From Cylindrospermum sp. NIES-4074 (lineage in GTDB: Bacteria; Cyanobacteriota; Cyanobacteriia; Cyanobacteriales; Nostocaceae): DNA of 64,000 bases. Below the pieces are notes generated by a model that was given only the letters and a program-made list of their open reading frames with translations, did no database searches and had not been told where the DNA came from. The position numbers were made by a program, and so were the translations under genes. Each line of letters opens with the position of its first letter. Position 1 is the stretch's first letter. This document shows positions 52,482 to 56,913 of this stretch, piece after piece. The stretch spans positions 5,829,254 through 5,893,253 of the forward strand of contig AP018269.1 in NCBI GenBank assembly GCA_003994795.1, written 5' to 3'.

Positions 52482-53093
52482 CTAAATCTGCAATGATGAA
52501 GTCGTCTCTTGCAAATACCCCGCAGCCACAGAATCATCAATCACTTGCAACACAAACGGCCAGAGTTCCGGCATCCCCGTCTCTACAGGAGCCATTCGTT
52601 TCATTGCTTGATCTCGTGTAATCCCATAAATCAGCCAAGTCCCGCCATGATTTTGCTGATTGTGTAGCAAAGGCTGTATTCTATCTAAGGAAGCGGCAAA
52701 TCTGGCTGTAGGCGTTTCCCTGGCTTCAAACTCTTGCCAAAGTAAACGCAACTCTTCACCTTGCTCTGTTGGTAATAGTCCGAATAAGCGGATAGCTGCT
52801 TGTGCTTCTAGGTCTGCTTTATTTTGATTTGCCTGGACATCGTAGCAGAAGATATCGCCGACATCGATTTCTACCAAGTCGTGAATCAGCAACATTTTCA
52901 TGGCGTGGGAGATATCCACCCCCGCAGGAGCATATTCTGCTAAAGCGATCGCCATTACTGCCAAATGCCATGAATGTTCGGCGCTATTTTCTCGCCGTGA
53001 ACCACCAACAAGAGAAGTTTGGCGTAGCACTTGTTTGAGGCGGTCAATCTCGATAATGAATTGAATTTGTTGAGTTAGTCGGTTGGTTGTCAC
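52482..53093 (-). CDS. HD-domain phosphohydrolase (YfbR/HDDC2-like)
   Basis: A 203-residue HD-superfamily enzyme. It has GGSRRENSAEHSWHLAVMA near 32-50 (first His), LLIHDLVEIDVGDIF near 88-102 (His-Asp metal pair and Asp-Val-Gly-Asp) and a distal Asp near 145. These match the HDDC2/YfbR group, which removes phosphate from deoxynucleoside 5'-monophosphates. The exact substrate is not proved. It lies just downstream, on the same strand, of the small-RNA array. Confidence 0.85.
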   Translation of the reverse strand: MTTNRLTQQIQFIIEIDRLKQVLRQTSLVGGSRRENSAEHSWHLAVMAIALAEYAPAGVDISHAMKMLLIHDLVEIDVGDIFCYDVQANQNKADLEAQAAIRLFGLLPTEQGEELRLLWQEFEARETPTARFAASLDRIQPLLHNQQNHGGTWLIYGITRDQAMKRMAPVETGMPELWPFVLQVIDDSVAAGYLQETTSSLQI

Positions 53094-53112
53094 GTTCGCA
53101 CTACTCCCATCA

Positions 53113-53184
53113 AAAAGCGCCTGGGAGTGTTACCGTGTTTCCACCCCAAGCGCCTTCTGTTTTCAACATTGCTCCTCACACACG
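53113..53184 (-). ncRNA. Yfr2-like small RNA, copy 1
   Basis: Minus-strand unit of about 72 nt. It starts GTGTGTGAGGAGCATTG, then has a strong stem (GCGCTTGGGGTG / CTCCCAGGCGC, one bulge) around a loop with GGAAACACGGTAACA, and ends in TTTTT. A consensus promoter precedes it. The layout and the GGAAACA loop fit the cyanobacterial Yfr2 ncRNA family as I recall it. Its 5' segment is the complement of the Yfr1 motif with one difference at the end. Confidence 0.62.
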
Positions 53185-53190
53185 ACTAAA

Positions 53191-53219
53191 TATTATCACG
53201 AGTTAAATTAAATGGCAAG
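53191..53219 (-). promoter_or_regulatory. Sigma-70 type promoter of small RNA copy 1
   Basis: TTGCCA (-35, 53214-53219), a 17-base spacer and TAATAT (-10, 53191-53196) on the minus strand place the start near 53184, exactly at GTGTGTGAGG. Confidence 0.72.
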
Positions 53220-53255
53220 TATATTGAACAACATTTTTTAAATTGTATAAAACAT

Positions 53256-53325
53256 AAAAAGCGCCTGGGAGTGTTACCGTGTTTCCACCCCAAGCGCTTT
53301 TTATATTCAACAATACTCCTCACAC
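53256..53325 (-). ncRNA. Yfr2-like small RNA, copy 2
   Basis: Minus-strand unit of about 70 nt, starting GTGTGAGGAGTATTG, with an identical loop and a stem whose base is AAAAAGCGC/GCGCTTTTT. The first 11 nt (GTGTGAGGAGT) are the exact complement of the conserved Yfr1 motif ACTCCTCACAC. The final T-run is a terminator. Confidence 0.65.
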
Positions 53326-53331
53326 AACTGA

Positions 53332-53360
53332 ACTTTATCATTAGTTGAATTAAATGGCAA
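53332..53360 (-). promoter_or_regulatory. Sigma-70 type promoter of small RNA copy 2
   Basis: TTGCCA (53355-53360), 17 bases, TAAAGT (53332-53337). The -35 element and flanks (TATACTTGCCATTTAATT) are shared with copy 1. Confidence 0.7.
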
Positions 53361-53418
53361 GTATATTGAGTCGTAGTGATAAAACTGGATGAAATCAGGC
53401 ATTTTTGGCATTGAAAAT

Positions 53419-53490
53419 AAAAAGCGCCTGGGAGTGTTACCGTGTTTCCACCCCAAGCGCTTTTTATATTCAACAATGCTCCTCACACAC
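53419..53490 (-). ncRNA. Yfr2-like small RNA, copy 3
   Basis: Minus-strand unit of about 72 nt with the same hairpin, loop, T-run and GTGTGTGAGGAGC start as the others. Its upstream -10-like TATCGT has no good -35, so it may be weak or use a different start. It is the copy nearest purH. Confidence 0.6.
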
Positions 53491-53580
53491 GACTAAACGA
53501 TATCACTGCTGGAAGCAATCGGCTAGGGTACTGAGTGACACTTTATAAACTGCACTATCCAGCAAGAAGAATCGCCTCAT

Positions 53581-55104
53581 TTAGTGTAAGAAGTGACGTA
53601 CTCCCGTAAACACCATCACTAAACCTAGTTCGTTAGCGGCTTTAATCACAACTTGATCTCGCAAACTTCCCCCTGGTTGGACAATGGCTTTAATGCCGGC
53701 ATCTGCGGCAGTTTTTACGGAATCATCAAAGGGGAAAAATCCGTCGCTGGCTAAGATTGCACCTTTGGCTTTTTCCCCTGCTTGTTCTAGGGCAATTTTT
53801 ACTGAGCCGACACGGTTCATTTGACCAGCACCTACTCCTAGTGTAGCGCGATCGCCACTCACAACAATGGCATTGGATTTAACGTGTTTGCAAACCTTCC
53901 ACGCAAACAGCAATTCTGTTAATTCTTCGGGGGTGGGTTGACGTTCGGTGACGACTTGCCATTGACTTGTGTCAGCAATGACATCATCAGCACCTTGCAC
54001 CAAAAAACCGCCAGCGATCGCTTTCACAGTTTCTTTGGGGCCGCTCACCAAATCTGGTAAAATCAAAATGCGAACATTAGCTTTTGCTGCCAGAACTTCT
54101 TGAGCATCGGCATCACAACCAGGGGCAACAACGCATTCTAAAAAGGTTTTGGTTAATTCCCTGGCTGTGTCCCCGTCAATGGAACGATTAAGGGCGACAA
54201 TGCCACCAAAAGCAGAAATCGGGTCAGCATGAAAAGCCTTTTGGTAAGCTGCATGGATGGTGTCACCTTCAGCGGTGCCACAAGGGTTAGTATGTTTGAT
54301 AATTGTGGCGGCGGGGGTGTCGGTGAATTCAGAAATGATCCGCCGTGCTGCTTCTAAATCAACTAAGTTATTGTAGCTAAGTTCTTTACCTTGCAATTTG
54401 GTCGCAGCAGCCCATCCTGTGAGTGTTGTACCAGTTTGATACCATCCTGCGCTTTGGTGGGGATTTTCGCCGTAGCGGAGGGGTTGCAGTTGTTGTCCGG
54501 TGAGGGTGTATTCTGGAGAAGTGCCAGCGAGGTAAGATGCGATCGCTTGATCATAACTTCCAGTGTGCAAAAATCCTTTTAACGCGCACTTTTGGCGAAA
54601 TTCTAAAGATGCTTCCCCGGCGTTTTGGCGTAATTCTTGCAAATACTCGCTATATTGACCAGGGTCACACAATACGGTAAGATGGGCAAAGTTTTTGGAT
54701 GATGCCCTTAACATTGCTGGGCCACCGATATCAATTTGCTCAACTGCCTCAGCTAATGTTACACCTGGTTTGGCGATCGCTTCCACAAAAGGATAAAGAT
54801 TCACCACCACCAAATCAATAGGGCGAATTTGGTTATTTTCCAAATCTGTCAAATCTTGCGCCACATCCCGCCGTGCTAAAATTCCTCCATGAATTCGGGG
54901 ATGCAGTGTTTTAACTCGACCGCCTAAAATTTCTGGAGAACCTGTATAATCAGCAACTTTTGTCACTGGTAGCCCTGCATCTTTGAGGGCTTGGGCTGTT
55001 CCCCCACTGCTGATTAAATCAAATTCAAATTCTTCAACTAAACTTCGGGCTAAGTCAATTAAACCAGTTTTGTTAGATACACTCAGCAGGGCTAGACGCG
55101 CCAT
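53581..55104 (-). CDS. purH: Bifunctional AICAR formyltransferase / IMP cyclohydrolase
   Basis: A 507-residue enzyme for the last two steps of IMP synthesis. The N-terminal cyclohydrolase (about 1-190) has SVSNKTGLIDLARSL, SSGGTAQAL and LHPRIHGGILARRD. The formyltransferase part has RYGENPHQSAGWY near 208, KHTNPCGTAEG near 265 with the catalytic Lys-His, and SDGFFPFDDSV near 455. Length is normal for cyanobacteria. The three small RNA genes lie directly downstream on the same strand. Confidence 0.97.
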   Translation of the reverse strand: MARLALLSVSNKTGLIDLARSLVEEFEFDLISSGGTAQALKDAGLPVTKVADYTGSPEILGGRVKTLHPRIHGGILARRDVAQDLTDLENNQIRPIDLVVVNLYPFVEAIAKPGVTLAEAVEQIDIGGPAMLRASSKNFAHLTVLCDPGQYSEYLQELRQNAGEASLEFRQKCALKGFLHTGSYDQAIASYLAGTSPEYTLTGQQLQPLRYGENPHQSAGWYQTGTTLTGWAAATKLQGKELSYNNLVDLEAARRIISEFTDTPAATIIKHTNPCGTAEGDTIHAAYQKAFHADPISAFGGIVALNRSIDGDTARELTKTFLECVVAPGCDADAQEVLAAKANVRILILPDLVSGPKETVKAIAGGFLVQGADDVIADTSQWQVVTERQPTPEELTELLFAWKVCKHVKSNAIVVSGDRATLGVGAGQMNRVGSVKIALEQAGEKAKGAILASDGFFPFDDSVKTAADAGIKAIVQPGGSLRDQVVIKAANELGLVMVFTGVRHFLH

Positions 55105-55578: not shown

Positions 55579-56913
55579 ATTTCAATCTCTAAAAAGGATT
55601 TTGGTGAATTGCAATTTTACCATTCTTGCCTTCCCAAGGTTTAACTTTTCTGTTTCAATCCCTAAGAGGGATTTTGGTGAATTGCAATTTTATCGCAAGT
55701 ATCCAATGTTTGATGAAAATGCGTTTCAATCCCTAATAGGGATTTTGGTGAATTGCAATATTTACTATCAGTAGTACCGTATTTCTGTTGGCAGGTTTCA
55801 ATCCCTAATAGGGATTTTGGTGAATTGCAATCACCAGGTACGGGAGAAAAAATATTACCAGAGTAGTTTCAATCCCTAATAGGGATTTTGGTGAATTGCA
55901 ATGCTTCACTAAAATATCTACATAGTCAGCCTTGGAGTTTCAATCCCTAATAGGGATTTTGGTGAATTGCAATTTGCCCTCTACTGCCCAAGTCGCGGTA
56001 GCAGTTCGTTTCAATCCCTAATAGGGATTTTGGTGAATTGCAATTGAAGAGAATCTAGAGCTGTAAAGCGCGGAGAACGAAATGGTTTCAATCCCTAATA
56101 GGGATTTTGGTGAATTGCAATTTATCCTCCTGGATATGTATACATTGTAATTGTGTTTCAATCCCTAATAGGGATTTTGGTGAATTGCAATGCGGACAGC
56201 TTGCATCGCACAGTGTAATTTCATGGTTTCAATCCCTAATAGGGATTTTGGTGAATTGCAATATAACTTGCACTATGATTGTTTCAATATTGAATAGAGT
56301 TTCAATCCCTAATAGGGATTTTGGTGAATTGCAATAAAGTAGAGGAAGCATCTAAGTCTTTTGTAAACGTGTTTCAATCCCTAATAGGGATTTTGGTGAA
56401 TTGCAATAATGCAGTAATTGATAAAATTGCAGGGAAAAAATGTTTCAATCCCTAATAGGGATTTTGGTGAATTGCAATTTGAATCCTCCAATCTGCTCGG
56501 CAGGATGGAGAAGATGTTTCAATCCCTAATAGGGATTTTGGTGAATTGCAATTCCTGTATTTAGTGGAATTCAAGCAACTTATCTCGTTTCAATCCCTAA
56601 TAGGGATTTTGGTGAATTGCAATACTGCATAAACGGCTGTGTCACCGCTGCCAGTTTTGTTTCAATCCCTAATAGGGATTTTGGTGAATTGCAATTTTGC
56701 TTCTCAAACTCCATCACCTCTTGCTTGCAGTTTCAATCCCTAATAGGGATTTTGGTGAATTGCAATGGCATGGCTTCTACTATCTTTGGATGCTGCGCTG
56801 TGTTTCAATCCCTAATAGGGATTTTGGTGAATTGCAATGCTATTAGAACAACGCAGGAAAAATGCATCTCAAATAAGTTTCAATCCCTAATAGGGATTTT
56901 GGTGAATTGCAAT
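55579..56913 (-). CRISPR. CRISPR array, 19 repeats of 37 bp, no cas genes in window
   Basis: Nineteen copies of a 37-bp repeat starting GTTTCAATCCCTAATAGGG and ending GGTGAATTGCAAT on the plus strand, with 18 unique spacers of 33-40 bp. The repeat's inner palindrome is CCCTA/TAGGG. On the minus strand the repeat ends ATTGAAAC, the usual 8-nt handle of type I and III crRNAs, so transcription runs right to left. The first repeat (55579) has several changes and the second (55652) one, which marks the old, leader-distal end and agrees with that direction. No Cas1, Cas2, Cas6 or effector gene is within the 64 kb, so the subtype is not determinable here. Short frames inside the array are artefacts of the 37-bp repeat. 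Confidence 0.98.

What the first reader, a model, noticed from the sequence alone, without database searches (positions are those of the whole stretch)
53113..53490. Three-copy tandem array of Yfr2-like small RNA genes between an HD-phosphohydrolase gene and purH
Three nearly identical units of 70-72 nt lie on the minus strand about 145-165 bases apart. Each has a GTGTGAGGAG start, a long G+C stem with a GGAAACA-containing loop, and a T-run. Copies 1 and 2 each have TTGCCA and a -10 with exact 17-base spacing that places the start at GTGTGAGG. Separate promoters plus terminators mean independent transcripts, not processed leader parts. The Yfr2 family is known to me as abundant, multi-copy and conserved in cyanobacteria; the match here is from memory of the family, not a search.
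Basis: partly seen in the sequence, partly recalled or inferred. Interest (0 to 1): 0.8.

Follow-up and report, generated by a model that had tools for sequence, protein, structure and literature searches.

The report
Three Yfr2 regulatory RNA genes
Three near-identical genes for Yfr2, a known small RNA of cyanobacteria that probably soaks up another small RNA called Yfr1, sit in a row beside a purine gene, in an arrangement shared by most close relatives examined, and the lead copy has a conserved switch-like DNA site in front of it.

Summary
Three direct repeats, each a long hairpin ending in a T-run, lie on the minus strand between purH and an HD-domain gene. All three pass the cut-off of Rfam RF01701 Cyano-1 (49.3-52.1 bits, cut-off 41), the motif a paper assigns to Yfr2. 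The genome has a fourth, weaker copy and one Yfr1 gene.

Best explanation: multi-copy Yfr2 antagonises Yfr1. The conserved 5' GUGUGAGGAG is complementary to Yfr1's unpaired CUCCUCACAC. Published work supports the interaction in Nostoc and Prochlorococcus.

The purH-side copy has an intact dyad, CASTT-N4-AASTGTCAC; its right half precedes the Yfr2 start motif in 60 of 243 genomes, control 0. The other two copies have a degraded dyad but a TTGCCA -35. The only other exact dyad in this genome precedes a conserved ~164-nt transcript candidate without an Rfam match.

The array is a new member of a known kind. No expression was tested.

The parts
53416..53492 (-). Yfr2 copy A (purH side); RNA predicted to start at about 53488-53490
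   Evidence: RF01701 52.1 bits; own model R1 96.5 bits (the model was built with this copy in it)
53255..53329 (-). Yfr2 copy B (middle); RNA predicted to start at about 53325
   Evidence: RF01701 51.4 bits; R1 90.7 bits at 53253-53329 (same caveat)
53109..53185 (-). Yfr2 copy C (HD side), possibly also leader of the HD gene; RNA predicted to start at about 53181-53183
   Evidence: RF01701 49.3 bits; R1 94.8 bits (same caveat); ends 15 nt before the HD start codon
53535..53552 (-). Dyad CAGTTTATAAAGTGTCAC, candidate operator of copy A
   Evidence: only exact CASTTN4AASTGTCAC match in the window and one of two in the genome
53332..53360 (-). Promoter-like site of copy B: TTGCCA - 17 - TAAAGT, TG before the -10
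   Evidence: upstream dyad degraded, 10 of 14
53190..53218 (-). Promoter-like site of copy C: TTGCCA - 17 - TAATAT, TG before the -10
   Evidence: upstream dyad degraded, 9 of 14
53581..55104 (-). purH (AICARFT/IMPCHase), upstream gene
   Evidence: PF01808 and PF02142
52482..53093 (-). HD-domain protein (HD_3, YfbR-like), downstream gene
   Evidence: PF13023 4e-54, PF12917 9.1e-11

Best explanation
The three units are yfr2 genes. Each RNA is about 72 nt: a 5' tail GUGUGAGGAG that is unpaired or weakly paired, then a long hairpin with a GGAAACACGGNAACA-type loop that doubles as terminator. Shown here: family match, covariation of the hairpin, conservation of the tail and its complementarity to the single Yfr1 of this genome. 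Inferred, with published support in other strains: the tail pairs with Yfr1 and keeps it from its mRNA targets, and several copies raise the dose. Inferred from sequence only: copy A is driven by a factor binding the dyad around -64 to -47, while copies B and C rely on better -35 boxes and would depend less on that factor. PlmA, the cyanobacterial GntR-type regulator whose Prochlorococcus form binds yfr2 promoters, is the first candidate.
For: RF01701 over cut-off three times. Hairpin supported by covariation on 30 copies: 13 of 18 pairs with changes on both sides, 0 of 500 shuffles reaching it (structure derived from the same alignment). GTGTGAGGAG is present in 63 of 63 sense copies of the family purH loci and 74 of 75 of the named loci (some of these copies built the model that found them). 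Own Yfr1 has the complementary motif fully unpaired; predicted Yfr2-Yfr1 gain is -17.9 to -21.6 kcal/mol for the four copies, and 0 or 1 of 200 shuffles of the first 14 nt reach it. RF01701 is found in 216 of 217 family genomes. Sense copies follow purH in 28 of 30 family loci, at least two in 24 of those 28. Published: Nostoc Yfr2 binds Yfr1 in EMSA (PMC6974561, passage); Yfr2 relieves Yfr1 repression in an E. coli reporter (PMC6778093, section 6); PMM1637 binds yfr2 promoters carrying CGRE1 (PMC6778093, passage). Dyad: 25 of 28 first copies score at least 12 of 14 against 1 of 3100 shuffles.
Against: No RNA was measured here. In the predicted folds part of the 5' tail is paired: unpaired probability falls to 0.18 in copy A and 0.37 in copy C. 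The Prochlorococcus pull-down found further Yfr2 targets, so sequestration may not be the whole function. The link from dyad to PlmA is untested, and the CGRE1 sequence could not be read. The dyad is intact only before copy A; the fourth copy also lacks it (8 of 14). The dyad is not only a yfr2 element: of 8 sites outside the own family scanned with Rfam, 1 has a Cyano-1 match beside it. The purH link is absent in 2 of 30 family loci and 4 of 38 named Nostocales.
Confidence: 0.85

Rival explanations
1. The array is Yfr2, but its main job is direct control of many mRNAs through the hairpin loop or tail, with Yfr1 binding secondary.
For: Much of the loop is invariant or nearly so in 30 aligned copies; the Prochlorococcus pull-down enriched many RNAs including psbA, nblS, rbcR and PMM1637 mRNA.
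Against: GUGUGAGGAG is fully complementary to Yfr1 in all four own copies; the Nostoc work proposes the Yfr1 route.
Confidence: 0.3
2. Copy C is mainly a 5' leader or attenuator of the HD gene rather than a free sRNA.
For: It ends 15 nt before the HD start codon with a GGGAG site between. Of 14 loci where the HD gene was found after the array, 4 have this short gap of 15-17 nt (own, L037, L053, L085). Synechocystis Yfr2b and Yfr2c share their start with a downstream gene.
Against: In 9 of those 14 loci the gap is about 78-106 nt, and in L039 about 500; in the other 96 of 110 purH loci no HD gene was found in the stretch held, which is short for the family set. Copy C has a promoter-like site and a hairpin with T-run of its own.
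Confidence: 0.15
3. The extra copies are decaying duplicates without function.
For: Copy C is 86% identical to copy B and its dyad is degraded; copy number varies from 1 to 4 at purH in the family loci.
Against: All three keep tail, loop and hairpin, and copies B and C keep consensus-like promoters.
Confidence: 0.07

Closest known systems
Yfr2 / Cyano-1 RNA (RF01701)
   Same: Model match over cut-off for three copies, same 5' motif, hairpin and loop, multi-copy
   Different: The introduction of PMC6778093 says yfr2 genes occur at unconserved loci; here the locus beside purH is conserved in most Nostocales examined, usually in tandem
Nostoc sp. PCC 7120 Yfr2
   Same: Four repeats in the genome reported; this genome also has four matches
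NsiR1 of Nostoc
   Different: Sequences not compared; whether Rfam holds NsiR1 was not checked
CGRE1 element bound by PMM1637 before yfr2 in Prochlorococcus
   Same: A promoter element of yfr2 genes

Membership tests
Yfr2 / Cyano-1 (RF01701) | Covariance model score over the curated cut-off | tested here: met
   52.1, 51.4, 49.3 bits against 41
Yfr2 / Cyano-1 (RF01701) | Conserved 5' tail GTGTGAGG and central loop on a long stem | tested here: met
   published description
Yfr2 / Cyano-1 (RF01701) | Own promoter and independent small transcript | tested here: inconclusive
   promoter-like sites before copies B and C, weaker for copy A; no transcript data
Yfr2 / Cyano-1 (RF01701) | Interaction with Yfr1 | tested here: inconclusive
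   predicted pairing only; binding shown by others for Nostoc
Yfr2 / Cyano-1 (RF01701) | Several copies per genome | tested here: met
   four matches, the fourth 38.5 bits, under the Rfam cut-off
PlmA/CGRE1 regulation | CGRE1 motif in the promoter | not testable with these tools
   paper PMC6191309 not held; motif name searched, sequence not found
PlmA/CGRE1 regulation | A PlmA-type GntR protein in the genome | tested here: inconclusive
   a 330-aa protein with a GntR domain whose N-terminus scores best, under the cut-off, against MocR-type models; not compared with a PlmA sequence

The most novel reading that the evidence does not exclude
One regulator, perhaps PlmA, uses the dyad CASTT-N4-AASTGTCAC to run a small regulon in Nostocaceae that is largely RNA: the purH-side yfr2 array and a second, unnamed transcript of about 164 nt starting GUGCAAGGAGUG. 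Both RNAs carry a 5' stretch complementary to the conserved CACUCCUCACACC of Yfr1 (GUGUGAGGAG and AGGAGUG), so both would buffer Yfr1, and within the array the copies divide into one factor-dependent and two more constitutive genes.
Probability: 0.25. Interest if true: 0.6.

Novelty: new member of a known kind. Interest (0 to 1): 0.38.

Why it matters
Yfr2 and Yfr1 are among the most widespread small RNAs of cyanobacteria, and what switches Yfr2 on outside Prochlorococcus is not settled in the papers seen. A conserved array with a conserved dyad gives a defined DNA target for finding that regulator in strains that can be manipulated, and the second transcript with the same dyad gives a way to test whether the network has another arm.

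Tried and rejected
Concerted evolution of the copies: mean within-genome identity 0.875 against 0.845-0.849 between genomes, and only 15 of 57 copies have their nearest copy (ties counted) in the same genome, so recent homogenisation is not the general rule.

Known light and nitrogen boxes (motifs recalled, from no call): HLR1-like sites in 5 of 62 upstream regions and GTA-N8-TAC in 4 of 62, so neither explains the promoter conservation.

Additional Yfr1-motif RNAs: ACTCCTCACAC occurs 6 times in the genome against 8 for the reversed control, no enrichment; one is Yfr1, one is the complement of copy B. The other four were scanned with Rfam without a match.

Protein-coding reading: the 96-aa minus-strand ORF across the array has no Pfam match. 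For the second transcript, frame 1 from its first base is open for 14 to 55 codons (in two of 20 to the end), with an NTG at position 1 in 20 of 20 and a shared start like VQGVIP, then diverges; a leaderless short peptide is neither shown nor excluded.

Structure of the second transcript: the fold of an incomplete stretch is no better than shuffles (z -0.09); on the 20-sequence alignment 7 of 35 pairs have a change on both sides, 3 of the 7 in the terminator hairpin. Support outside the terminator is weak.

Papers: 42 papers hold 'Yfr2', 40 listed, several unrelated. Yfr2 with purH returned 0. Yfr2 with tandem returned 14, several unrelated; I read Yfr2 passages in five of them (PMC6974561, PMC8400943, PMC4734099, PMC3610870, PMC7344720) and one more section of PMC4734099; none describes a purH array in what I saw. 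String searches for the dyad's right half and for the second RNA's 5' end returned 27 and 22 papers; of the 20 listed each, all are on other subjects by title, one of them a cyanophage paper. Supplementary tables, where PCC 7120 sRNAs are listed, could not be read, so the second transcript may already be catalogued there.

Full report
What is there. The minus strand between purH (53581-55104) and an HD-domain gene (52482-53093) carries three direct repeats, spaced 144 and 163 bases. I call them A (purH side), B and C (HD side). All three match Rfam RF01701 over its cut-off. A model built here from 30 copies, the four own copies among them, gives 96.5, 90.7 and 94.8 bits for A, B and C; as it was built with them, these scores are not independent. 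The whole genome holds one more match, 38.5 bits with RF01701 and 65.4 with the own model, at C1:640115-640184, and a single Yfr1.

Why it is Yfr2. Cyano-1 is described as the motif of the Yfr2 family (PMC8400943, passage). Voss et al. describe a conserved unpaired 5' end and a conserved 12-nt loop on a long stem, and a printed Yfr2a oligonucleotide carries the same GTGTGTGAGGAG start (PMC2662882, passages). The copies here have both features. On 30 aligned copies, chosen by me from model hits, the hairpin shows 97.0% paired cells and 13 of 18 pairs with changes on both sides; none of 500 shuffles reaches this and slid controls pair 40-56% of cells. The structure was derived from the same alignment.

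Distribution. RF01701 is present in 216 of 217 genomes of the family, mostly 2 to 5 matches each. Of 60 family genomes searched for purH, 59 have it; the 30 best-scoring loci were examined, so the sample leans to close relatives and includes the own locus. Sense copies follow purH in 28 of 30, 63 copies in all, at least two in 24 of the 28 (12 further matches on the other strand are the mirror of the hairpins). L060 and L061 have none, also by Rfam. By record title I class 38 as Nostocales; 34 of these have sense copies (75 in all; 5 further matches on the other strand); none of the other 42 do, three of which (L106, L114, L128) have little DNA after purH. Fifteen of those 42 were also scanned with RF01701: 0 matches. 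The Nostocales without copies are L083, L088, L096 and L124. So one yfr2 locus is conserved in Nostocales, although the family is described as lying at unconserved loci (PMC6778093, introduction).

How it probably works. The tail GUGUGAGGAG is present in 63 of 63 and 74 of 75 sense copies of the two sets and is complementary to CUCCUCACAC, which is unpaired in the own Yfr1. Predicted gain on pairing is -18.6, -20.1, -17.9 and -21.6 kcal/mol for C, B, A and the fourth copy; shuffling the first 14 nt gives means of -9.1 to -11.3, with 1, 1, 1 and 0 of 200 shuffles reaching the real value (there c1 is C and c3 is A). The Yfr1 core CACUCCUCACACC is reported conserved in all homologs of 89 genomes (PMC4734099, section 15). 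[quoted passage not shown] Prochlorococcus Yfr2 undoes Yfr1 repression in an E. coli reporter (PMC6778093, section 6). This genome's own RNAs were not tested.

Promoters. Registered on the -10, 62 distinct upstream regions of the family share TG-N-TAT-NN-T, a -35 region ACTTGCC, and a dyad CASTT-N4-AASTGTCAC starting at about -64. It scores at least 12 of 14 in 25 of 28 first copies, 11 of 23 second and 7 of 11 later copies; 1 of 3100 shuffles does. In the named set 26 of 34 first copies and 52 of 73 copies do. In the window only copy A has it intact; B scores 10, C 9 and the fourth copy 8. Promoters without the dyad nearly always have TTG at the -35: family 19 of 19 against 29 of 43 with the dyad (Fisher p 0.003); named 19 of 20 against 34 of 52 (p 0.015). 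These counts are not corrected for relatedness and the sets may overlap. The window fits: A has the dyad and TAGCCG, B and C have TTGCCA and a degraded dyad.

The dyad elsewhere. AASTGTCAC 38-58 bases before GTGTGAGGAG occurs in 60 of 243 genomes of the order, in 13 of 33 families sampled (11 of 18 genomes of the own family, 49 of 225 others, by my count), with the reversed control at 0. The matches were not each checked with RF01701, and absence in 183 is for an exact pattern. In 25 genomes the full dyad occurs 57 times against 4 for the reversed control, some sites being read on both strands. Of 43 sites in the 16 genomes of the own family, by my comparison of coordinates 16 lie at the second transcript below (15 by overlap, one), 14 before a yfr2 match, 3 just after purH without a separate check, and 10 elsewhere. 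Against this, of 8 sites from other families scanned with Rfam only 1 has a Cyano-1 match beside it. So the dyad is linked to these RNAs in the own family but is not exclusive to them. In the own genome with one mismatch there are 27 sites against 7 for the control; 7 of the 27 read GACTTACGCAAGTGTCAC.

The second transcript. The other exact own site (C1:2849808-2849825) stands before a -10-like GATATCCTT, a start GTGCAAGGAGTG and a terminator hairpin that ends a predicted RNA of 164 nt. A 261-base stretch with the dyad in it is found over most of its length in 22 of 24 family genomes of the 40 searched, partly in one more, and in none of 16 genomes of other families. In the 20 loci aligned the dyad is exact in all. 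The stretch has no Rfam match. AGGAGUG can pair with CACUCCU of Yfr1; own predicted gain is -12.6 kcal/mol, 0 of 100 shuffles of the first 20 nt reaching it, though the best shuffle is close at -12.2. The other loci were paired with the own Yfr1 only. With the spacing pattern it is found in 15 of 243 genomes, 15 of 18 of the own family and 0 of 225 others, control 0. It may encode a short leaderless peptide and may already be in tables I could not read.

Which factor. PMM1637, a GntR regulator common to cyanobacteria, binds yfr2 promoters with the CGRE1 motif in Prochlorococcus (PMC6778093, passage), and reviews name PlmA as a regulator of YFR2 in marine picocyanobacteria (PMC7344720 and PMC6243067, passages). 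The genome has two GntR-domain proteins; one, 330 aa, has a MocR-like N-terminus. A listed motif of the MocR-type regulator PdxR begins AAAGTGG (PMC4494728, passage), close to AAAGTGTCAC. This is a lead, not a test.

Verdict. The array is an ordinary, well-conserved member of a known family; the dyad and the second transcript are what deserve a follow-up.

Noticed in passing
L153:1293-1456 (minus strand), dyad at L153:1501-1518; G000:C1:2849600-2849763 and 2849808-2849825: Conserved intergenic transcript candidate of 164 nt with the same upstream dyad as yfr2 copy A, a terminator hairpin and no Rfam match; found over most of its length in 22 of 24 family genomes searched.
   Followed up: partly
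55652-56913: CRISPR array of 18 CRISPR-DR5 repeats on the minus strand, upstream of purH; DR5 repeats also lie upstream of purH in the same-genus locus L037. No cas genes were sought.
   Followed up: no
53093-53109: The HD gene starts 15 nt after the end of yfr2 copy C, with a GGGAG site in between; a similar gap of 15-17 nt is seen in L037, L053 and L085.
   Followed up: partly
L054:957-1040: A PsrR1 RNA match (48.4 bits, cut-off 42) lies downstream of the purH of one relative.
   Followed up: no
G000, several places, among them L163, L166 and L167: GACTTACGCAAGTGTCAC, one base off the dyad, occurs 7 times on three contigs, and two more sites (L171, L172) differ from it by one base; it looks like part of a dispersed repeat.
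   Followed up: no
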